Shown: one piece after another, positions 1 through 11,372 of the stretch
Layout: the number at the start of each line of letters is the position of its first letter
Numbering within the stretch: the stretch's first letter is position 1
Program-made: the position numbers and the translations under genes
Source of the DNA: Hamadaea flava
GTDB taxonomy: Bacteria; Actinomycetota; Actinomycetes; Mycobacteriales; Micromonosporaceae
Direction: 5' to 3'
Assembly: GCF_024172085.1 (NCBI RefSeq)
Contig: NZ_JAMZDZ010000001.1
Location: 1,674,001-1,738,000, forward strand
Length of the DNA: 64,000 nt
The notes under the pieces: model-generated
Told to the model about the DNA's origin: nothing
Seen by the model: the letters and a program-made list of their open reading frames with translations, nothing else
The model's database searches: none

Positions 1-483
1 CGTCCCAGCCGCCCCGTCGAATGTGTGCCGGAATCGTGCGGCCGAAGTATGCACACAGCCCGTCCCGGCCGGCAGCGGTGCGCAACCGGCCGGCAGCGGA
101 TGCACCCTGGTCAGAGTCAGTTTGGCCGTGCTGTCCACACGTTGGACCACGACGGTGATCCCGACGCGGGTGTCAGTCGCGGGCGCAGTCTGGACATACA
201 GCGCGTTGGGCAGCCAATCCACATAAGTGAAGATCGTCTTGGTCGGGGTGAGGGTGGCTCCGCTGACCGCGTCCCGCAGCGACACGACCTTCACGTCGAC
301 CGGGCTGAGGTCCACCAGGCTGTAGGTGATCTGCCATTGCCCGGCGGTGTCGCAGTAGGCGCTGCTCGCGATCGAGATCGCCGGCGCGGTGTCGGCCGTC
401 GCCGGCGACGAGGCGCTCAGCAGTGCTCCGCCGGCCAGCATCGCGACTGCCGCAAGCGCTCTGACGATTCTGGATGTGGCCAT
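1..483 (-). CDS. secreted protein of unknown function, C-terminus cut by window edge
   Basis: The frame stays open from an ATG at 483 to the window edge (161 codons), so the C-terminus is missing. The start is supported by a GGGGAGGG Shine-Dalgarno sequence about 7 bases upstream. The N-terminus is a clear Sec signal peptide: a short Arg-containing start, a hydrophobic Ala/Leu stretch at residues 7-22, then SPATA before the likely cleavage site at about residue 31. The mature part is beta-rich with Cys near residue 43 and three more Cys near the cut end, which suggests disulfides outside the cell. I do not recognise a family. It lies 71 bases downstream of the sigma/CAP fusion on the same strand and could be co-transcribed with it. 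Confidence 0.75.
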   Translation of the reverse strand, partial: MATSRIVRALAAVAMLAGGALLSASSPATADTAPAISIASSAYCDTAGQWQITYSLVDLSPVDVKVVSLRDAVSGATLTPTKTIFTYVDWLPNALYVQTAPATDTRVGITVVVQRVDSTAKLTLTRVHPLPAGCAPLPAGTGCVHTSAARFRHTFDGAAGT

Positions 484-554: not shown

Positions 555-1904
555 CTATCGCGACCCGAACAGCTGCGTCCAGTAGTACCGGTACGGGCCG
601 CCCTTGGCCATGCCGATGCCGACGGCCTTGTGCGAGCAGTTGAGGATGTTCGCCTTGTGCCCGGGCGAGTTCATGAACTGGTTCATCGTGCCCTTCGCCG
701 TGGCGTTCCCGGCTGCGATGTTCTCGGCGGAGGCGTACTGGTAGCCGGCCGCCCTCGCCCGGTCCCAGGGCGTACGCCCGTCGAGGGAGGTGTGCGAGAA
801 GTACTCGTTGGCGGCCATGTCGGCACTGTGCAGTTCGGCGGCCTTGGCCAGCTTGTCGTTGAACACGACCGCCTTGCAGCCGGCCTTGGCCCGTTCGGCG
901 TTGATGAGCGCCAGCATCTGCTTCTCCGGGGACAGCTTCGTCGGGCTGCTGCTCGGCGACGGCGTACGGCTGGCCGGGGCGGACGTCGACGGCACGGCCG
1001 ACGGTGCGACGGACGGGGCGGCCGAAGACTCCGCTGATGAGGACGCGCTGGGTGCGGCGTCGGGCGTCGGCGGGACGTCCGCGGCGTACGCGATGGTGCC
1101 GGCCGCGACGCTGGCCAGTACGACGCCGAGGGCCGCCTTCACCGCCAGCCACCGCAGCGGGCTGCCCGCCACTCGGGCCGTCGGCTTGCCGAGCAGCACC
1201 GCCAGCGTTCCGGCGTACGCGGGAACGGCCACGTCGACGCGCTTGCACTGCTCGCACCGGCGTACGTGGTGGTCGACGCTGGCCCGCTGCTTGGCCGACA
1301 GCGGCGGGCGGGCTCCTTGCAGCAACCGGGTCAGCGGCTGGCAACGGTCGCTTTGGCGTACCATCATGGTCGTCTTGATCGCGTGGCCGAGCGCGGAACG
1401 TGCGCGGTGGACGAGCACTGCCGCGTGCGCGCCGCGGACGCCGACCACCTCCCCGATCTCTTTGCTGGACAGGTCCCAGCGCAGGGCGAGTTCGAGGACC
1501 GCGCGCTGGCGCGGTTCGAGTCCCATGGCCGCGTCCCAGACGAGCTGACGGGTCTCGCGGCGTTCGGCCGCCGTCTCCGGACTGGCCAGCGGGTCCGGGT
1601 CGGCGATGTCGACGCCTTCGCCGAGCGGCACGAACGAGCGGCGGCGGGCCGAGCGCAGCGCGTGCCGGTACGCGATGGAGAACAGCCACGTCTTGATCGC
1701 GGCCGGATCCCGCAGCGAGCCGAGGTCGCGCCAGGCGATGAGGAAGCACTCCTGGACGATGTCCTCGGCCTGGTGATGGTCGCCGACCTGCCGGATGACC
1801 AGGCCGAGCAGGCTGGGCCGATAGCGGCGGTAGAGCTGTTCGAACGCGTCGCGGTCCCCGGCCGCGGCGGCCTGCGCCAGATACGCGTCGGACGTCATGT
1901 TCAC
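555..1904 (-). CDS. ECF sigma factor fused to zinc anti-sigma-like motif, TM helix and CAP domain
   Basis: One continuous 449-residue frame. Residues about 20-88 are sigma region 2 (ending in KTWLFSIAYRHALRSARR) and about 118-175 are sigma region 4 with a helix-turn-helix (SSKEIGEVVGV). Residues 213-220 carry HxxxCxxC (H213, C217, C220), the pattern of zinc anti-sigma (ZAS/zf-HC2) domains. Residues about 253-275 form a membrane helix, followed by a Pro/Ser/Ala-rich linker (277-322) and a CAP/SCP domain (325-449) with the motifs HTSLDGRTPWDRA, AENIA and SPGHKANIL. Predicted topology puts the sigma part inside and CAP outside. The start follows a GGGAG sequence by about 5 bases. Sigma factor, anti-sigma and an exported CAP protein are normally separate genes; their fusion is inferred from the unbroken frame. 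Confidence 0.9.
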   Translation of the reverse strand: MNMTSDAYLAQAAAAGDRDAFEQLYRRYRPSLLGLVIRQVGDHHQAEDIVQECFLIAWRDLGSLRDPAAIKTWLFSIAYRHALRSARRRSFVPLGEGVDIADPDPLASPETAAERRETRQLVWDAAMGLEPRQRAVLELALRWDLSSKEIGEVVGVRGAHAAVLVHRARSALGHAIKTTMMVRQSDRCQPLTRLLQGARPPLSAKQRASVDHHVRRCEQCKRVDVAVPAYAGTLAVLLGKPTARVAGSPLRWLAVKAALGVVLASVAAGTIAYAADVPPTPDAAPSASSSAESSAAPSVAPSAVPSTSAPASRTPSPSSSPTKLSPEKQMLALINAERAKAGCKAVVFNDKLAKAAELHSADMAANEYFSHTSLDGRTPWDRARAAGYQYASAENIAAGNATAKGTMNQFMNSPGHKANILNCSHKAVGIGMAKGGPYRYYWTQLFGSR

Positions 1905-1995
1905 TCCCGGGGTCGAGGGCTTGACCTTAGTAGGTGCCTGCGGCGATGGTCACCATTACGACCAGCGGGAGAATTTCTTCGGTTAGCATCGCCGA

Positions 1996-2664
1996 ATGTC
2001 TGACCTGCGGGAAACTGTCATCGCCTGGCAACTCGGCTGGGCCGCCAGCCGGGAGCTGCCCTCGGCACAGCCGGTCGACGGCGGCCTGCGCGTCGAATGC
2101 CGCCAGCCGTTGCGGGACGTGGAGATCTTCGCGCTGCACGCCGACGACGACCCGGACTCGGTGACGCGTCTCGCCGAGCTGCTGCCGGCGGAGACGGACA
2201 CCGCCTGGCTGACCGTGGCGACCCGCGAGCCCGACCGGGTCGCGGCCCTGCTGGAGGCGGCCGGGCTGGAGTTCTACTCCCGGGTCGAGGCGCTGATGAC
2301 GACGGATCTGCGGACGCAGCCGGTCCGCCCGGTGGCCGCGCCGTATCGGCTGCACACCGAGGTCACCGGTCCAGTGGTGCACGTCCGTGTCCTGGCCGAC
2401 GACGGCACCGAGGCGGCGCACGGGTACGCCGGACTCGCCGGCTCCTACGCGGTGATCGACCGGATCCTGACGGCGCCGGAGCATCGCCGGCGGTCGCTCG
2501 GCACCGCCGTGATGACCGCGCTCGCCGAGGCCGCGATCGCCGCGGGCGCTCCGCAGGGCCTGCTCGTCGGCAGTGTCGAGGGTCAGGCGCTGTACGGCTC
2601 GCTGGGCTGGTCGAAGGTCGCCGACGTACTGGTCGCGAAGCTGCCCGGCTCGCCTACTGCATGA
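1996..2664 (+). CDS. GNAT-family N-acetyltransferase
   Basis: A 222-residue protein. The C-terminal half is a GNAT fold: the acetyl-CoA-binding stretch APEHRRRSLGTAVMTALAEAA at about 160-180 carries the RxxGxA-type loop, and YGSLGW near residue 210 matches the end of motif B (here Y-x-x-L-G-W). The N-terminal half looks like a degenerate GNAT repeat. The family transfers acetyl from acetyl-CoA to amines; the substrate cannot be read from sequence. It is divergent from the sigma/CAP gene with 91 bases between them. The ATG has only a weak ribosome-binding site. Its stop codon lies inside the long palindrome at 2661-2714. Confidence 0.85.
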   Translation: MSDLRETVIAWQLGWAASRELPSAQPVDGGLRVECRQPLRDVEIFALHADDDPDSVTRLAELLPAETDTAWLTVATREPDRVAALLEAAGLEFYSRVEALMTTDLRTQPVRPVAAPYRLHTEVTGPVVHVRVLADDGTEAAHGYAGLAGSYAVIDRILTAPEHRRRSLGTAVMTALAEAAIAAGAPQGLLVGSVEGQALYGSLGWSKVADVLVAKLPGSPTA

Positions 2665-2714
2665 TCATGGTCGTTTCCGCGCTGCCATGGTGGCCCGGAA
2701 ATGACCATGATCAT
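2661..2714. repeat. long imperfect palindrome at the 3' end of the GNAT gene
   Basis: Arms at 2661-2678 and 2697-2714 are 18 bases each with one mismatch, starting ATGATCATGGTC and ending GACCATGATCAT; the centre is about 18 bases. It overlaps the stop codon of the upstream gene and lacks a U tract, so it is not a standard intrinsic terminator, although a hairpin could still act as one. It is much more AT-rich at its ends than the surrounding DNA. It could be a dispersed REP-like element; copy number cannot be judged from one window. Confidence 0.7.
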
Positions 2715-2749
2715 AGAGAATCATCGAACTGGTCGGGCTACAGTGGACG

Positions 2750-3604
2750 ATGCCTGATGAAGCCGAGCGGCCAATCGTCGTCACCTTCGACAGCCGATAC
2801 ACCCGCGCCGCCATGGCGATGCTGCACTCCTTATCAGCTGTCCGAACTGGACAGAAGACCACGGTCATCGCGCTCGCCGGCGAGCTGCCCCAGCGCCAGG
2901 CGTACGCCGTCACCAGCGCAGCCCACGCGGCTGGGCTCGACTTCGAGATCCGCGACATGACGGGCGCGTGCCTGGATCTGCCGTTCGACTCGCACGGCTC
3001 ACCCGCGGTCTACTACCGCCTGCACATCGCCGAGTTGCTCCCCGAGTACGACAGCGCGCTGTACGTCGACGCGGACACCATCTTCCTGCGCGATCCGGCG
3101 GAGCTGCTCACCCTGGACCTCGGACCGCACCCGCTCGCCGCGGTTCAGGACGTGTGCGTACCCACCCTCGGCTCCCCCGACTGCCTGCCCGGCGTGCCGC
3201 TCGACGAGGACGAGCGCGCGCTGCCGTACTTCAACTCCGGGCTCCTGGTCATCGACCTCGACCACTGGCGGCGGCTCGGCATCGGCTCGGCCGCGCTGCG
3301 CTTCGCCACCACGTCCGCGCAGCACGTGCGGTTCTGGGACCAGGACGCGCTCAACCACGTGGTACGCGGAGACTGGCGTCGGCTCGACCGGCGCTGGAAC
3401 GTCTTCCCGCTGGAGGACATCTGGCAGGCGGAGGAGTTCCCCTACTACGGCGAGGAATACGTTCCCCGCAGCGGGCTGGCCCGGTTGGCGCGGGAGGCGT
3501 ACCTCATCCATTTCGTCACCCGTCACAAGCCGTGGACGGACAGCTTTCCGGCGGGTCGTCTACGGGATCTGTGGTGGTCCTACGACGAACCAGCTGTGCG
3601 GTGA
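2750..3604 (+). CDS. family 8 glycosyltransferase
   Basis: A 284-residue protein with the GT8 layout (LgtC/glycogenin type): an N-terminal nucleotide-sugar fold beginning IVVTFDSRYTRAAMAMLHSL, a YYRLHIAELLP segment, and the metal-binding DxD motif at D107-A-D109 in YVDADTIFLRDP. The stretch YFNSGLLVIDLDHWR is the typical conserved GT8 acceptor-side motif. GT8 enzymes use UDP-sugars with retention of configuration; donor and acceptor are unknown. There is no signal peptide or membrane helix, so it is probably cytosolic. Its 3' end overlaps the convergent GT2 gene by 89 bases. Confidence 0.9.
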   Translation: MPDEAERPIVVTFDSRYTRAAMAMLHSLSAVRTGQKTTVIALAGELPQRQAYAVTSAAHAAGLDFEIRDMTGACLDLPFDSHGSPAVYYRLHIAELLPEYDSALYVDADTIFLRDPAELLTLDLGPHPLAAVQDVCVPTLGSPDCLPGVPLDEDERALPYFNSGLLVIDLDHWRRLGIGSAALRFATTSAQHVRFWDQDALNHVVRGDWRRLDRRWNVFPLEDIWQAEEFPYYGEEYVPRSGLARLAREAYLIHFVTRHKPWTDSFPAGRLRDLWWSYDEPAVR

Positions 3605-4448
3605 ACTGCGGAGCGAAGGTCGCCCCTCGACGCCCGCGCGCCAAGGCCACGAGATGCCGCCGCCACATGCCGCCGGCCAGGATCGCCGCGACGACGGTCG
3701 AGCGAAACGATCGGCCGAGGTAGCGGTGGGTCGACCGCGACCACAGGTTCGCGGTGTCGACCGTGGCCGCCGAGGACTGCGCGCCCGCGTGGTTCACGAG
3801 CAGTCGGGGATCGATCAGGACTCGCCATCCGTTGGCGCGCAGGCGATCGGACAGATCGAGGTCCTCGTTGTACAGGAACAGGTCGGGGCGGAAGCCACCG
3901 ATCGCGTCGAACGCCGTTCGGCGGACGAGGAGGCAGGCGCCGGACGCCCAGCCGACGGCGATCGGAACGCATGCCCGGGTCGCCGTAGCCCAGACGCAGC
4001 GGGAACCGAGCAGGACGTCGGGCAGCAGGAGATAGCCCAGCGCGGAGAGCAGGCCCGGTGTCGCGCCGCCGTAGATCTGCCGCCGGCCCAGCCGGGGCGC
4101 GCAGGCGGCCGCGTCCGGCCACTCCTCCAGCACCGAGATCAGGCCGTCGATCGTCGACGGGTCGGCTCGGCAGTCCGGGTTGAGGAACAACAGGTACGCC
4201 GAGGCACTCTCTCGCGCGCCGACGTTGCAGGCGTACCCGAAGCCGGCGTTGCGCCCGATCGCGATGTACCGGTGCCCAGCGCACACGCGCCGGGTATCGA
4301 CGTCGACGCGTTCGGCGTTGTCGACGACCGTCACCGGATACCGTCCGGACAGGCCGCCGAGCATCCCGGCCAGCTGGACCGAACTCCAGTAGGAGACGGT
4401 CACGACCTGCACGCTTCCCCGAGGTCCGATGTCGCGCCTCCTGTCCAC
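3516..4448 (-). CDS. family 2 glycosyltransferase (rhamnosyltransferase-like)
   Basis: A 310-residue GT-A fold protein. Recognisable parts are VQVVTVSYWSS at the start, NAGFGYACNVGAR in the donor-binding region, LFLNPDCRAD in the position of the DxD motif, and ACLLVRRTAFDAIGGFRPDLFLYNEDLDLSDRLRANGW, which matches the WbbL/rhamnosyltransferase-type acceptor region (FLYxEDxDLxxR). A role in cell-surface glycan assembly is inferred. It starts 18 bases after the stop of the NarL-type regulator on the same strand, so it may be read from the same transcript. Its last 30 codons overlap the opposing GT8 gene. Confidence 0.88.
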   Translation of the reverse strand: MDRRRDIGPRGSVQVVTVSYWSSVQLAGMLGGLSGRYPVTVVDNAERVDVDTRRVCAGHRYIAIGRNAGFGYACNVGARESASAYLLFLNPDCRADPSTIDGLISVLEEWPDAAACAPRLGRRQIYGGATPGLLSALGYLLLPDVLLGSRCVWATATRACVPIAVGWASGACLLVRRTAFDAIGGFRPDLFLYNEDLDLSDRLRANGWRVLIDPRLLVNHAGAQSSAATVDTANLWSRSTHRYLGRSFRSTVVAAILAGGMWRRHLVALARGRRGATFAPQFTAQLVRRRTTTDPVDDPPESCPSTACDG

Positions 4449-4466: not shown

Positions 4467-5102
4467 TTACTGATTGAGGTACGCCAGAACCGCCAGCACG
4501 CGGCGGTGGCCGTCGGCCGACGGGGGCAGGCCGAGCTTGGCGAAGAGGGCGTTGATGTGGTTGCTGACCGACTTCTCGGTGATCGTCAGGTCGGCGGCGA
4601 TCGCGGCGTTCGACCGGCCCTCGGCCATCAGCCGCAGCACGTCCCGTTCGCGGGGGGTCAGCACGGCCAGGCTGCTGCGCTGCTGGAGCAGCTGGGAGAC
4701 CACCTCGGGGTCCATCACCGTCGCACCAGCGGCCACCTGGCGCAACGCGTCGATGAACTGCTGTACGTCGCCGATCCGGTCTTTCAGCAGGTAACCCACG
4801 CCACCCGCACGGTCGGAGAGCAGCTCCCTCGCGTACAGCTGCTCCACATACTGCGACAAGATCAGCACCGGGAGGCCGGGAACCTCGGTTCGGGCGGCGA
4901 TGACCGAGCGCAGGCCCTCGTCGGTGAAGCTCGGCGGGAGGCGTACGTCGATGACCGAGACGTCGGGACGGTGCTCCACCAGCGCCTCGGTCAGCTGCGA
5001 GCCGTCGTCGAGCGCGACCACCACCTCGAAGCCGTAGGCGGTCAGCATCCTGGTCAGGCCGTCGCGCAGCAGGGGCTGGTCCTCGGCGATCAAGACGCGC
5101 AC
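4467..5102 (-). CDS. NarL/LuxR-type response regulator
   Basis: A 211-residue regulator. The receiver domain has the acidic pair at E7-D8, phosphoacceptor D52 in VSVIDVRLPP and a conserved Lys in YLLKDRIGD. The C-terminal LuxR helix-turn-helix runs from about 148 to 205 (LTPRERDVLRLMAEGRSNAAIA). The ATG lies inside the end of the histidine kinase gene with a 13-base overlap, indicating translational coupling and a cognate pair. Targets are unknown; the hydrolase gene that starts beyond the kinase in the opposite direction is a plausible local candidate. Confidence 0.94.
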   Translation of the reverse strand: MRVLIAEDQPLLRDGLTRMLTAYGFEVVVALDDGSQLTEALVEHRPDVSVIDVRLPPSFTDEGLRSVIAARTEVPGLPVLILSQYVEQLYARELLSDRAGGVGYLLKDRIGDVQQFIDALRQVAAGATVMDPEVVSQLLQQRSSLAVLTPRERDVLRLMAEGRSNAAIAADLTITEKSVSNHINALFAKLGLPPSADGHRRVLAVLAYLNQ

Positions 5103-6331
5103 GGCAGCTCCATCTCCAGCGTGGTGGGGCCGCCCGTGGGGCTGCTGATCCGCAGGGAGCCGTCGAACGCCGACAGCCTTCGCTGGATCCCGCGCAGTCC
5201 CGTGCCTCGTCCGGCGTGGGCGCCGCCCCGGCCGTTGTCGTGCACGGCCAGACTCAGAAAGTGTCCATGATCGGCGACGGCGACCTGGATCAGGGTCGCG
5301 CCGCTGTGACGGATCGCGTTGACCATGGACTCGGCGAGGACGAAGTACGCCGCCGACTCCACGGGGGCGGTCAGTCGCCGGTCGAGCCGCAGGTCGAGCT
5401 CCACCGGGATGCTACTGGACAGTGCCAGCGCCTGCGCCGCGCCGGCCAGGCCACGGTCGGCCAGCATCGGCGGGTGGATGCCGCGTACCAGGTCGCGCAG
5501 CTCGGTCAGGGCAGAGCCGGCGCTCGCGCTCGCCTCGGCCATCAGCGCCCTCGCCGTGGCCGGGTCGGCGTCGAGCACGTCCTGTGCCATGCCGATGTTC
5601 ATGCGTACCGCAACGAGGCGCATCTGCGCGCCGTCGTGCAGATCCCGTTCGATCCGGCGCAGCTCCGCGGCGGAGGCGTCGACGGCCGCCGCCCTGGTCG
5701 CGGTGAGCCGGTCCACGCGAGCCGACAGCTGTGCCGCGGACGTGGGGCGGAGCAGCGCGGCCGCCAGCCGGGCCTGACCGCTGAGCAGATGCCGGGGCAG
5801 GCGGTACGCGAGGAGCGCCAGCCCTGCGCCGACCGGCACCAGCAGCCAGCCCAGCAGGGTCGACCGGCCGGTGAACTCGAGTACCGCCGGGTCGAACCCG
5901 GTCCGAGCCGGCAACAGCGCCCGCAGCAGCGGTGCGGTCAGGCATTCCACGGCGGCGAGCCACAGCCCGAGACCTGCCGCGAGGCCGGCGATGCCGAGCC
6001 CGAACTGCGACACCAGCCAGGCCAGGTCACGCCAGGTCGCCGTGTCGCTGACCACGGCGCGGGCTCTGGGGAGCAGTCCTTCGGGATGGTCCGCATAGGG
6101 CCGTTCGATCGGCCTGCCGAGCAGCGCGGCGGCCCGATCGCGCTGAACGTTCGCCAGCCGGCGCAGCAGTGTCCCGGCGACGCCGAACACCACGATGCCC
6201 AAGCCCGCGACGAGACTCGCCGGCACCGAGAGCAGAATCATGGCCAGCAGGAACGGCGCCGGCAGCCCGATGACCGCGCCGACGAGCAGCTGCCCTGACT
6301 CGCGAGCACCGCGGGCGAACCTCCACCCCAT
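5090..6331 (-). CDS. membrane sensor histidine kinase (HisKA_3 type)
   Basis: A 413-residue kinase. I place the start at the ATG at 6331 because GGGGAGGG lies about 8 bases upstream; an in-frame ATG at 6451 would add 40 residues of poor quality. Hydrophobic segments at about 12-57, 100-130 and 145-175 suggest four to five membrane spans with no large external sensor domain. The dimerisation domain has RRIERDLHDGAQ with H232 as the phosphoacceptor; the ATPase domain has NGRGG and GTGLRGIQRRL. It pairs with the overlapping NarL-type regulator. The signal sensed is unknown. Confidence 0.92.
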   Translation of the reverse strand: MGWRFARGARESGQLLVGAVIGLPAPFLLAMILLSVPASLVAGLGIVVFGVAGTLLRRLANVQRDRAAALLGRPIERPYADHPEGLLPRARAVVSDTATWRDLAWLVSQFGLGIAGLAAGLGLWLAAVECLTAPLLRALLPARTGFDPAVLEFTGRSTLLGWLLVPVGAGLALLAYRLPRHLLSGQARLAAALLRPTSAAQLSARVDRLTATRAAAVDASAAELRRIERDLHDGAQMRLVAVRMNIGMAQDVLDADPATARALMAEASASAGSALTELRDLVRGIHPPMLADRGLAGAAQALALSSSIPVELDLRLDRRLTAPVESAAYFVLAESMVNAIRHSGATLIQVAVADHGHFLSLAVHDNGRGGAHAGRGTGLRGIQRRLSAFDGSLRISSPTGGPTTLEMELPCAS

Positions 6332-6514
6332 GGTCACGTCCCTCCCCTGCGTCCGAGTGCCCGGCCGACCGCCGACCACAAGATCGAATCTAGGGAGTCG
6401 GACCGGGGGAGTCGACGGAGCAGGCCCCTCACTACGTCCAGGTGCCTGCACCCAGCCGACTTCAGGTGCGTCCGCCGTGGTCCCCGACCTGGTCGACGAG
6501 CGAGCCTGTTCGTC

Positions 6515-7988: not shown

Positions 7989-10900
7989 ATGATCTTGCAA
8001 CCTTTGATGTGGAGACGTCTGGCCGCACTGGCTTCGACGATCCCGTTAGGACTCGGCGTGGCCGCGGTGGCGGCGGATTCCACCGCCGGCTCCCTGCTTC
8101 CGGCCGCCGTGCTGGAGTCTGCGGAGGCCGGGACCGGCACCGTGACCCTGGTGACCGGGGACCGGGTGGAGCTTCCCGGCCCCGGTCGGCAGCCCCGGAT
8201 AACCCCGGCCGCCGGGCGCAGGTCCATGCCCTTCCAGGTACGCGCGAAGGCCGGCCATCTCCAGGTGATCCCCGGCGACGCCGCCGGACTGATCGCCGCC
8301 GGTCGGCTGGACGAGCGGCTGTTCGACGTGACGACGTTGCTGGCGTCCGGTTACGACGACTCACGTCGCGCCGAAGTGCCGGTCATCGTGCAGTCCAAGG
8401 ACGAGCAGCCGGTGTCGGCCTTCGGCGTTCAGGGCCGGGTGCTGCGCAGCATCGGCGCGACGGCGGTGTCCGTGCCGAAGCGTGGAGCGACCGCCTGGTG
8501 GAAGACGACGGCGACCGCGCCGGGCGTACGGAAGGTCTGGCTCAACGGCTTGCGGCGGGTGAGCCTGGACCGCAGCGCGGCGCAGATCAACGCACCGGCC
8601 GCGTGGGGACAGGGATTGACCGGAGCCGGGGTGACCGTGGCCGTCGTCGACAGCGGCATCGACGCCGGCCACCCGGACCTCGCGGGAAAGGTGGTGGCCT
8701 CGGCGAACTTCACCGCCGACCCGGCTGGTGACGGCCGCGGCCACGGTACGCATGTCGCCTCGACCATCGCCGGTACCGGTGCCGCGTCCAACGGCCGATA
8801 CCGGGGCATCGCCCCCGACGCACGCCTGCTCGACGCGAAGGTGTGCGACGCCGAAGGCATGTGCGCGGAGGATGCCATCCTGGCCGGGATGGAGTGGGCG
8901 GCGGTGACGCAGCACGCCCGCGTCGTGAACCTGAGCCTCGGCGGCGTCGACACCCCGGACGTCGATCCGCTGGAGCAGGCCGTGAACACGCTGTCGGCGC
9001 AGTATGGCACCCTGTTCGTCGTGGCCGCCGGCAACTCCGGCCCGAGTGACGGCACCGTGGAGTCGCCCGGCAGCGCCGAGGCGGCGTTGACCGTCGGCGC
9101 GGTCGACCGCCAGGACGCCGTCGCCGAGTTCTCCAGTCGTGGCCCCGTCCGCGGCACCGGTGGACTCAAGCCGGACCTGGCGGCTCCCGGGGTGGACATC
9201 GTCGCCGCGCTCGCCGCCGGCACGGAGTCCGGGGAGGTCGTGGACGACCGGTACGTGCGGCTGTCCGGCACCTCGATGGCGACGCCCCACGTCGCCGGGG
9301 CGGCGGCGATCCTGCTTCAGGCCCATCCGCAGTGGACGGGCGGCCAGCTGAAGTCGACCCTGATGGGCTCGGCTCACCTGACGCCGGACGCGCGGGTCGC
9401 CGATCAGGGAGCGGGCCGGGTCGACGTGGCGGCAGCGCTGAAGCTGCCCGTCACGGCTGCCCCGGCGAGCGTCGGCTTCGGCGTCGCCCGCTGGCCGCAC
9501 ACCGACGATCCGCTGCTGTCGACGACGATCACCTACACCAACACGGGCGATGGGGCGATCACCCTTGCCCTGGACTTGCGGGTGACGGGCGCGGACGGCG
9601 TACCGGCACCGGCGGGTTCGTTCACGGTCGGCTCCGACCACGTCGTGATCCCCGCCCACGGGTCCACATCGGTGACGGTCACCGCCGACACGAAGTCGGA
9701 CGTGCTGCCGGTCGGCCGGTACGCGGGCCGGCTGCTCGCCTCGGCCGACGGCGTACAGGTCAGCACGCCGGTCGGGGTGGAGAAGGAAAGCGAGCACTAC
9801 GACCTGAAGATCCGGCACATCGGCCGGGACGGCGCGGTGCCGGGCTCCTACGTCACCTTCGTCGACCGTGTCGGCGACTGCGGCACCGATCCGGCGTGTG
9901 GCGCGGTCGCCTTCGGTGCGGAGGGAGCATCGGCCGGCGTGTCGGTTCTCCGGTTGCCGCCGGGGCGCTACACGGTGGCCGAGTTCAGCACCACCGCCGG
10001 GACGAACGACACCAACCTGTTGATGCGCCCCGTTCTCGACCTGACCCGCGACGTCTCCTTGACGGTGGACGCCCGGCGAGCCAAACCGGTGGAGCTGACC
10101 GCTCCGCGAGCCTCGGCCCGGTTGATGCAGTGGGACCTGCACGCGGCGCGCGACATGGAGCGTCCCGGCGCGGTGTTCGACTATTCGGTGTCCGGCGACG
10201 CGTCCACGCCCCTCTACACCGGCGACCTCGGCGGCCCGCCAGCCTCCGGCGACCTCGTCGCCTTCGTCCAGGGCCGGCTGGCCGAACCCGGACCGGCCGG
10301 CGACTTCACCGGCAGCCCGTATGAATACCAACTGGCGTACACGAAGCTGGACAGGTTGTTCACCGGCTTGCGGCTGCGGCCCGCCCAACGCCAGTTCGCC
10401 ACGGTGTACGCCCAGTACGCCGCCGTGACCGGCGAACCCCGCGACGTGAAGACCGAGCACGGGGCCCGGCCCACCGTCGGACGGGCCGACCTGCTCCAAT
10501 TCGGACCCGTCTTCGCGACGAACCGCCTGATCGCCACCGCGCCCTTCACCCGCACCGAGTACTACCTGGCCGACGGGCTCGAGTGGAACACGATGATGAT
10601 GCAGGGCAGCCGGGAGACCGGCGCGACCGACTATCTGCTGTACGACGAGCAGCGGCACCGCTATGAACCGGGCCGGACCTATCGGCAGGGGTGGTCCTCC
10701 GGCGTCTTCGGGCCGCATTTCGTCGCGCCGAAGATGCAGCCCAACGGATTGGCGAACGGCGTGATGCGGCAAGGCGACCGGTTCGCCGCCTCGGTGGTGA
10801 TGTTCGCCGACTCCGACCCGAACCACGCGGGCGAACCCAAAGTGCAGGCCAGGACCGCACGAGCCCGGCTGTACCGCGACGGCGTCCTGCTCCAGGACTG

Positions 10901-11372
10901 GCAGCCCTTCGTCTACCTGAGTCGCACCCTGCCACCGGCGGAGTCGACCTACCGGCTGGAGGCCACCGTCACGCCGCCCGCCTCGGAGATCTCCACCAGT
11001 GTCACGACCGCGTGGACGTTCCGGTCGGCGCACGTGGACGGCGACCAGGCCGTCGCGCTGCCGCTGCTCGGCGTCCGCTATCGGCCCGACCTCGACGCGT
11101 ACAACCGCGCGGCGGCGGGCGCGTACACCGTTCCGGTCGAGGTGTTCCGGCAGCTGGGAGCGGGAACGCCCGACATCACCCAGATCACCGTGGAGTACTC
11201 GGTCGACGACGGTGGCACCTGGCGGTCCGCGCCGCTCACCCGCGACGGCAGCCGCTGGCTGGCAGCCGTGGACAACCCGGCGGGTGGGGCGGTCTCCCTG
11301 CGGATCACCGCCGCCGACGCCGACGGCAACCGGCTCGAACAGACCACCACGCACGCGTACCTGGTCCGCTGA
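7989..11372 (+). CDS. large secreted subtilisin-like (S8) serine protease
   Basis: A 1127-residue protein. A hydrophobic leader (residues 9-30) precedes a prodomain with VTLVTGDRV, typical of actinobacterial S8 prodomains. The catalytic triad is D221 (VAVVDSGID), H252 (GHGTHVAS) and S429 (GTSMATPHVAG), with the oxyanion Asn in VVAAGNSGP. The approximately 630 residues after the catalytic domain are beta-rich and repeat-like, including a Cys pair in DCGTDPACG, and resemble the long accessory region of other actinomycete subtilases. It is probably a broad extracellular protease. Transcription ends at the hairpin at 11378-11408. Confidence 0.94.
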   Translation: MILQPLMWRRLAALASTIPLGLGVAAVAADSTAGSLLPAAVLESAEAGTGTVTLVTGDRVELPGPGRQPRITPAAGRRSMPFQVRAKAGHLQVIPGDAAGLIAAGRLDERLFDVTTLLASGYDDSRRAEVPVIVQSKDEQPVSAFGVQGRVLRSIGATAVSVPKRGATAWWKTTATAPGVRKVWLNGLRRVSLDRSAAQINAPAAWGQGLTGAGVTVAVVDSGIDAGHPDLAGKVVASANFTADPAGDGRGHGTHVASTIAGTGAASNGRYRGIAPDARLLDAKVCDAEGMCAEDAILAGMEWAAVTQHARVVNLSLGGVDTPDVDPLEQAVNTLSAQYGTLFVVAAGNSGPSDGTVESPGSAEAALTVGAVDRQDAVAEFSSRGPVRGTGGLKPDLAAPGVDIVAALAAGTESGEVVDDRYVRLSGTSMATPHVAGAAAILLQAHPQWTGGQLKSTLMGSAHLTPDARVADQGAGRVDVAAALKLPVTAAPASVGFGVARWPHTDDPLLSTTITYTNTGDGAITLALDLRVTGADGVPAPAGSFTVGSDHVVIPAHGSTSVTVTADTKSDVLPVGRYAGRLLASADGVQVSTPVGVEKESEHYDLKIRHIGRDGAVPGSYVTFVDRVGDCGTDPACGAVAFGAEGASAGVSVLRLPPGRYTVAEFSTTAGTNDTNLLMRPVLDLTRDVSLTVDARRAKPVELTAPRASARLMQWDLHAARDMERPGAVFDYSVSGDASTPLYTGDLGGPPASGDLVAFVQGRLAEPGPAGDFTGSPYEYQLAYTKLDRLFTGLRLRPAQRQFATVYAQYAAVTGEPRDVKTEHGARPTVGRADLLQFGPVFATNRLIATAPFTRTEYYLADGLEWNTMMMQGSRETGATDYLLYDEQRHRYEPGRTYRQGWSSGVFGPHFVAPKMQPNGLANGVMRQGDRFAASVVMFADSDPNHAGEPKVQARTARARLYRDGVLLQDWQPFVYLSRTLPPAESTYRLEATVTPPASEISTSVTTAWTFRSAHVDGDQAVALPLLGVRYRPDLDAYNRAAAGAYTVPVEVFRQLGAGTPDITQITVEYSVDDGGTWRSAPLTRDGSRWLAAVDNPAGGAVSLRITAADADGNRLEQTTTHAYLVR

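What the first reader, a model, noticed from the sequence alone, without database searches (positions are those of the whole stretch)
555..1904. Sigma factor, anti-sigma-like motif, membrane helix and CAP domain in one protein
The sequence shows one unbroken 449-codon frame containing ECF sigma regions 2 and 4, an HxxxCxxC zinc motif (H213, C217, C220), a membrane helix, a Ser/Pro linker and a CAP/SCP domain. ECF factors are normally released from a separate membrane anti-sigma factor. Here the sigma factor could be tethered to the membrane with an external CAP sensor and might be freed by proteolysis. I know of ECF groups with soluble C-terminal extensions but not a named group with this full set.
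Basis: partly seen in the sequence, partly recalled or inferred. Interest (0 to 1): 0.78.

Follow-up and report, generated by a model that had tools for sequence, protein, structure and literature searches.

The report
Membrane-tethered sigma factor with CAP domain
A soil bacterium makes one protein that joins a gene-switching factor, its probable built-in brake, a membrane anchor and an outside domain of the CAP family; such one-piece switches are known, but this outer part seems to have been attached to them at least twice and, in relatives, the switch appears to control other CAP proteins.

Summary
Confirmed: 555-1904 (minus strand) is one intact gene encoding ECF sigma regions 2 and 4, a Cys/His anti-sigma-like zinc motif, one membrane helix, a Ser/Pro linker and a CAP domain. 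It is no frameshift: 14 of 51 genomes searched keep it in one frame, with all four zinc ligands, and CAP is as conserved as sigma-2. The kind is known: ECF48/52/53 fuse sigma, zinc finger and membrane helix, and ECF52 (SCO4117) ends in a carbohydrate-binding domain. What differs is the CAP module. Sigma and CAP trees both reject one clade of sigma-CAP proteins, so CAP probably joined this chassis at least twice: in the window's lineage A, and in lineage B (12 proteins, mostly Streptomycetaceae plasmid records), whose relatives carry AbfB, beta-helix or glycosidase domains. All 14 lineage A genes share a promoter-like footprint nearly confined to them, suggesting autoregulation. In lineage B another motif precedes 11 of 12 sigma-CAP genes and several separate CAP genes, adjacent and unlinked: the outer domain resembles the predicted product, as with clostridial RsgI6. 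That CAP regulon was not found for the window's own lineage. Proteolytic release and the signal remain inference.

The parts
555..1904 (-). Gene for the sigma-zinc-TM-linker-CAP protein, stop codon included; probable start ATG at 1896-1898 (447 aa)
1635..1835 (-). Sigma-70 region 2 (residues 24-90 from GTG)
   Evidence: Pfam PF04542 1.6e-14
1389..1547 (-). Sigma-70 region 4 (residues 120-172)
   Evidence: Pfam PF08281 1e-4, below its own cut-off; NCBIfam sigma70-ECF covers 19-172 above cut-off
1239..1343 (-). Anti-sigma-like zinc motif, C188 - H213 - C217 - C220
   Evidence: all four residues in 14 of 14 orthologues; Pfam zf-HC2 only below cut-off in orthologue L005, not hit in the window protein
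1092..1148 (-). Single predicted membrane helix (residues 253-271); more Lys/Arg before it than after it
   Evidence: hydropathy scan of 14 orthologues
930..1079 (-). Ser/Ala/Pro-rich linker, weakly conserved
567..914 (-). CAP domain (residues 331-446), with His359, His371, Glu394, His416 and Cys343/Cys423 (from GTG) kept in 14 of 14
   Evidence: Pfam PF00188 4.6e-25
1929..1960 (-). Promoter-like footprint CGTAATGG-N17-ACCTACT upstream of the gene
   Evidence: conserved upstream of 14 of 14 orthologues

Best explanation
The gene encodes a one-piece ECF sigma factor. The cytoplasmic sigma domain is held inactive by a fused Cys/His zinc domain of the class I anti-sigma type, anchored by one membrane helix; the C-terminal CAP domain stands outside on a flexible Ser/Pro stalk and senses an envelope or extracellular ligand. 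On a signal, cleavage outside and then within the membrane would free the sigma part, which transcribes its own gene from the conserved upstream footprint. Shown: one frame, domain order, conservation, orthologues, footprint, no conserved neighbouring anti-sigma gene, separate origins of the sigma-CAP pairing. Inferred: topology, inhibition by the zinc domain, CAP as sensor, proteolysis, autoregulation, and the ligand (peptidoglycan-related is my guess).
For: 14 of 14 orthologues in three genera keep the full order and the four Cys/His positions; CAP conservation 0.85 equals sigma-2 0.85, sigma-4 0.90, linker 0.61; purifying selection on CAP. Neighbourhoods of four orthologues share no gene apart from this one, so no separate conserved anti-sigma gene was seen. 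The same chassis carries other outer domains in related proteins: AbfB, beta-helix, glycosidase, NPCBM. The footprint lies upstream of 14 of 14 orthologues, with 3 further matches in the same 14 genomes and 0 control matches. The published model for ECF48/52/53 is the same (PMC8999054 section read; PMC5826349 passages). In lineage B a shared motif links sigma-CAP genes to separate CAP genes.
Against: No experiment and no usable structure: the AlphaFold model has mean pLDDT 49.6. zf-HC2 is not hit in the window protein. The strict footprint in the window's genome gave one match and so did its control, so the count in one genome proves nothing; GTAAT could instead be the -10 of a housekeeping promoter. 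No further target was found: the 3 extra matches are not in front of a recognisable gene, and the window genome's other CAP gene lacks the footprint. The lineage B regulon therefore does not carry over to the window's protein.
Confidence: 0.6

Rival explanations
1. The full-length protein works without proteolysis: ligand binding or a change at the zinc site is passed on as a conformational change and the tethered sigma factor works from the membrane.
For: The zinc ligands are invariant, which suits a redox or metal switch; nothing here shows a cleavage site or a dedicated protease gene nearby in four neighbourhoods.
Against: The linker and helix are weakly conserved (0.61-0.62), which speaks for tether rather than signal relay; related fused and separate systems use proteolysis (PMC8999054, section read).
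Confidence: 0.2
2. It is a two-in-one precursor: CAP is cut off constitutively and secreted like the ordinary separate CAP proteins, and sigma is freed as a by-product.
For: The window copy and two orthologues (L004, L005) have an Ala-Tyr-Ala-Ala-Asp stretch after the helix that resembles a signal peptidase site.
Against: The 11 orthologues of genus g17 lack that stretch; a constitutive cut would leave the sigma factor always on.
Confidence: 0.1
3. CAP is only an anchor or cell-wall effector and carries no signal; the sensing is done in the cytoplasm.
For: CAP-type domains are often secreted effectors or binding proteins (recalled); a DalA-type lipoprotein binds peptidoglycan (PMC10470522, abstract and passages).
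Against: In sister proteins the same place holds quite different domains (AbfB, beta-helix, glycosidase, NPCBM), as expected of a changeable sensor; three of four annotated AbfB loci lie near an arabinofuranosidase gene (not L082).
Confidence: 0.07
4. An assembly error, frameshift or recent chance fusion joined two ordinary genes.
For: Separate CAP genes and separate ECF genes are common in these genomes.
Against: 14 of 14 orthologues are single frames in separate assemblies and CAP is under purifying selection.
Confidence: 0.02

Closest known systems
ECF52 sigma factors (SCO4117 of Streptomyces coelicolor)
   Same: Sigma domain, zinc finger, membrane region, proline-rich stretch and outer domain in one protein; proteolytic release proposed (PMC5826349, abstract and passages)
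   Different: Outer domain is a carbohydrate-binding NPCBM-type domain, not CAP; sigma sequence of the window's lineage forms its own clade, though a joint clade with the ECF52-like set is not rejected (p 0.093)
ECF53 and ECF48 sigma factors
   Same: C-terminal zinc finger and one or two membrane helices fused to sigma (PMC8999054, section read); some ECF52/53 with glycosyl hydrolase or carbohydrate-binding domains (PMC10766802, passages), which resembles lineage B here
   Different: No reference sequence or model was at hand to test membership; CAP was not mentioned in the passages seen
Sigma-I / RsgI of Clostridium thermocellum
   Same: Outer sensor domain can resemble the product of the regulon: RsgI6 GH10 is 57% identical to Xyn10D, whose promoter sigma-I6 recognises (PMC4711584, passages). 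Lineage B shows the same pattern with CAP
   Different: Sigma and anti-sigma are two proteins there; the sigma family is different; no such mirrored target was found for the window's own lineage
IutY (ECF243) of Pseudomonas putida
   Same: Fused sigma/anti-sigma shown to be activated by regulated proteolysis (PMC8999054, section read)
   Different: Gram-negative cell-surface signalling with a siderophore; no CAP domain
YkwD/DalA-type CAP proteins
   Same: The outer domain aligns to spore_YkwD (1.3e-32) and DalA (3.1e-16), both below the curated cut-off
   Different: Those are free secreted proteins or lipoproteins without a sigma domain

Membership tests
ECF sigma factor | Regions 2 and 4 without regions 1 and 3 | tested here: met
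   region 4 alone is below Pfam's cut-off
Class I (zinc) anti-sigma domain | Hx3Cx2C with an upstream Cys or His ligand | tested here: met
   C-x24-H-x3-C-x2-C in 14 of 14
Class I (zinc) anti-sigma domain | Match to the curated zf-HC2 model | tested here: not met
   no hit in the window protein; 0.0097, below cut-off, in L005
Class I (zinc) anti-sigma domain | Packs against and inhibits the sigma domain | not testable with these tools
   AlphaFold model unusable, mean pLDDT 49.6
ECF52 | Sigma, zinc motif, membrane helix and Pro-rich stretch in one chain | tested here: met
ECF52 | C-terminal carbohydrate-binding (NPCBM-type) domain | tested here: not met
   only CAP found there
ECF52 | Sigma sequence groups with ECF52-like proteins | tested here: inconclusive
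   own clade 100/100; joint clade with L102, L106, L058, L064 not rejected, p 0.093; a narrower test without L058/L064 gave p 6e-5 but leaves out their close kin
ECF48 / ECF53 | Match to the group's profile | not testable with these tools
   classification papers not held; no group models available
RsgI/sigma-I | Separate sigma and anti-sigma genes | tested here: not met
   one frame
CAP superfamily | PF00188 above cut-off with the conserved His/Glu residues | tested here: met
   4.6e-25; residues kept in 14 of 14; that these are the cavity residues is recalled

The most novel reading that the evidence does not exclude
CAP is a genuine sensor module, captured at least twice by one-piece ECF sigma factors, and in lineage B the switch drives the genes of secreted CAP proteins, so that free and tethered CAP could compete for one envelope ligand: a product-mirroring feedback circuit like RsgI6, but in a single polypeptide. 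If so, the long unclear role of bacterial CAP proteins becomes testable through a reporter.
Probability: 0.3. Interest if true: 0.75.

Novelty: new variant of a known kind. Interest (0 to 1): 0.57.

Why it matters
Bacterial CAP/YkwD proteins are common and their ligand is poorly known (recalled). A CAP domain wired to a sigma factor offers a direct read-out of what CAP binds: grow reporter strains with the predicted promoter and screen envelope signals. The repeated swap of outer domains on one chassis (CAP, AbfB, beta-helix, glycosidase, NPCBM) also shows how actinobacteria build new one-protein envelope sensors, and gives predicted promoters for two lineages.

Tried and rejected
A scan of viral contigs with the lineage alignment gave 3 loci with ECF-like matches only (25-29%), not followed.

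Frameshift or split-gene artefact: rejected. A single origin of sigma-CAP proteins: rejected by the sigma tree (p-AU 7e-4, 2.8e-6, and 4.5e-4 with four odd rows removed) and by the CAP tree (4e-5). Wider placement of lineage A is unresolved: A with all of lineage B (p 0.28) and A with the ECF52-like set of four (p 0.093) are not rejected; A with the Ig-like set p 0.010. Trees cannot tell gain from loss.

'Neighbour carries the same domain' as a general rule: not supported. One search found it only for CAP; arabinofuranosidase genes near AbfB sigma genes do not themselves hold AbfB. The published ECF52 motif is too degenerate to compare with the lineage A footprint. First lineage A pattern for 14 genomes was too narrow and missed the g17 genus; repeated with a corrected one. 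An exploratory single-genome count gave one match and one control match.

Paper searches for a sigma-CAP fusion returned 0 papers; the library lacks the main ECF classification papers and supplements were not open, so this is weak evidence of absence.

Full report
WHAT IS THERE. The reported stretch holds one minus-strand gene, 558-1904 plus stop. From the N terminus it encodes ECF sigma regions 2 and 4, a Cys/His motif, one hydrophobic helix, a Ser/Ala/Pro-rich stretch and a CAP domain. Region 4 is below Pfam's own cut-off but the general ECF model passes. The likely start is the ATG at 1896-1898. The window lies in an 8.86 Mb genome; its closest named relative is a Hamadaea MAG.

IT IS A REAL, CONSERVED GENE. 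Across 51 distinct genomes 14 have the full-length protein: 2 of 4 in the window's genus, 11 of 11 in genus g17, 1 of 1 in Catelliglobosispora, 0 of 35 in the rest. All 14 are single frames of 438-480 aa. Identity to the window protein is 89, 65 and 56% for three of them. Mean frequency of the commonest residue is 0.85 for sigma-2, 0.90 for sigma-4, 0.76 for the zinc region, 0.62 for the helix, 0.61 for the linker and 0.85 for CAP; four putative zinc ligands and the checked CAP residues are invariant. dN/dS for window and L004 is low in CAP and sigma-4 and highest in the linker. The four neighbourhoods compared share no gene apart from this one.

THE CHASSIS IS KNOWN. ECF48, ECF52 and ECF53 are described as sigma factors fused to a zinc finger and one or two membrane helices, expected to be activated by proteolysis (PMC8999054, section 3.5.3 read). 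ECF52 adds a proline-rich stretch and a carbohydrate-binding domain; a truncated SCO4117 had a milder phenotype than a deletion (PMC5826349, abstract and passages). I found two unnamed-genome proteins of that design by searching NPCBM (6 of 40 genomes with any NPCBM, two of the matches in a sigma-bearing frame).

CAP WAS PROBABLY JOINED AT LEAST TWICE. Eleven sigma-CAP proteins of a second lineage (B) were found first: ten in plasmid records of Streptomyces, Kitasatospora, Embleya and Streptantibioticus, one in G010; a twelfth turned up later (L149). Lineage B also holds AbfB (8), beta-helix (6), glycosidase-core (2) and GH99-like (1) members among the 29 in the tree. In the sigma tree lineage A is a clade (100/100) and lineage B another (100/99); holding all sigma-CAP proteins together is rejected (p-AU 6.9e-4, 2.8e-6, 4.5e-4). 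The CAP domains tell the same (4.1e-5), with two long CAP branches (L078, L023) as a caution. Where A sits more deeply is open: A with all of B (p 0.28) and A with the ECF52-like set (p 0.093) are not rejected.

PROMOTERS. Lineage A: BGTAATGR-N16/17-ACYTAYY occurs 17 times in the 14 genomes, 14 of these just upstream of the sigma-CAP gene, one per genome, with 0 control matches. The other 3 are not in front of a recognisable gene. A stricter form in the window's genome alone gave 1 match and 1 control match, so the argument rests on position and conservation. The g17 sequences also allow GTAAT to be read as the -10 box of an ordinary promoter. Lineage B: YGTTATC-N16/17-GTCTCC is found upstream of sigma-CAP genes with 0-1 mismatch in 9 of 12, 2 mismatches in 2 (L042, L077) and not within 2 in 1 (L073). 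In a scan of six plasmid records and G010 (about 14.4 Mb; four records left out for size) a looser form had 19 matches and 0 control matches; the 8 that fit the strict form all precede a CAP-bearing gene. Six of the 8 had been in view when the motif was drawn up; two were new and both proved to be CAP genes: a second Embleya sigma-CAP and an unlinked Kitasatospora CAP lipoprotein (CAP 2.3e-14).

SEPARATE CAP GENES. A separate CAP gene adjoins 4 of the first 11 lineage B sigma-CAP genes (L072, L073, L076, L077: one subclade) and the twelfth (L149): 5 of 12. It was seen beside 0 of 18 lineage B loci with other or unknown outer domains (flanks differ) and 0 of 3 lineage A loci. Six separate CAP genes form one group in the CAP tree (support 90/88): L043, L065, L072, L073, L076, L077. 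Of these five have the motif with 0-1 mismatch and one (L073) with 2; L065 and L043 are not adjacent to the sigma gene (one search's stretch missed the L076 site that searches show). The other 20 distinct CAP genes have at best 2 (L013), 3 (L011) or 4-5 mismatches. Of five more, L121, L149 and L150 have it (0, 1, 1; in L150 it lies 418 bases before the annotated start), L151 and L152 do not. Caution: the motif is not special to CAP. It also precedes sigma genes with glycosidase or beta-helix domains and a secreted metalloprotease-like gene (L060, L067, L083, L075), so it marks lineage B as a whole.

MECHANISM. The best-supported picture is an autoregulated, membrane-tethered sigma factor with built-in zinc anti-sigma domain and outer CAP sensor, released by proteolysis. 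In lineage B it predicts that secreted CAP proteins are made when the tethered CAP senses its ligand. The RsgI6 case, whose GH10 sensor is 57% identical to the regulated Xyn10D (PMC4711584, passages), is a precedent for such mirroring. For the window's own lineage no target beyond its own gene was found, and its genome's other CAP gene lacks the footprint. The ligand is unknown; a link to peptidoglycan is suggested only by distant similarity to DalA.

VERDICT. Observation confirmed; interpretation partly right. A new variant of a known kind, made more interesting by repeated capture of CAP and by the predicted CAP regulon in lineage B.

Noticed in passing
L040 (NC_011961.1, Thermomicrobium roseum plasmid) 2908-4218: A one-piece ECF protein with sigma domain, Cys/His motif and hydrophobic stretch outside Actinomycetota; its outer part matches no Pfam family.
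   Followed up: partly
L149 about 2531-4092 (Embleya sp. NBC_00896): Second sigma-CAP gene with the lineage B motif; its zinc-motif stretch reads as Arg-rich sequence unlike all relatives, perhaps a frame change or sequence error; a CAP lipoprotein gene with the motif (1 mismatch) follows it. Described only.
   Followed up: partly
L056, L055, L058 (own genome, near 0.62, 1.18 and 4.19 Mb): The window's genome has further one-piece sigma proteins: one with a Pel9A-like beta-helix, one of 476 aa and one of 832 aa with no recognised outer domain.
   Followed up: partly
L024-L026, L029-L031: A separate clade of six one-piece sigma proteins in Micromonosporaceae-type genomes with a shared, unnamed C-terminal domain of about 100 residues (labelled Ig-like by eye, no Pfam hit).
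   Followed up: partly
L087, L088, L089: Sigma-AbfB genes lie near alpha-L-arabinofuranosidase genes in three of four annotated AbfB loci (not L082): substrate-binding sensor beside the matching enzyme.
   Followed up: partly
L075 4812-4840: Lineage B motif (1 mismatch) 50 bases before a predicted secreted metalloprotease-like gene beside an Embleya sigma-CAP gene.
   Followed up: no
window 4467-6451: Response regulator and histidine kinase genes on the minus strand, and a large subtilase-like gene at 7989-11372 (plus strand), as read by eye from the frames.
   Followed up: no
window 1-483: A probable secreted protein gene on the minus strand, cut by the window edge, downstream of the sigma-CAP gene.
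   Followed up: no
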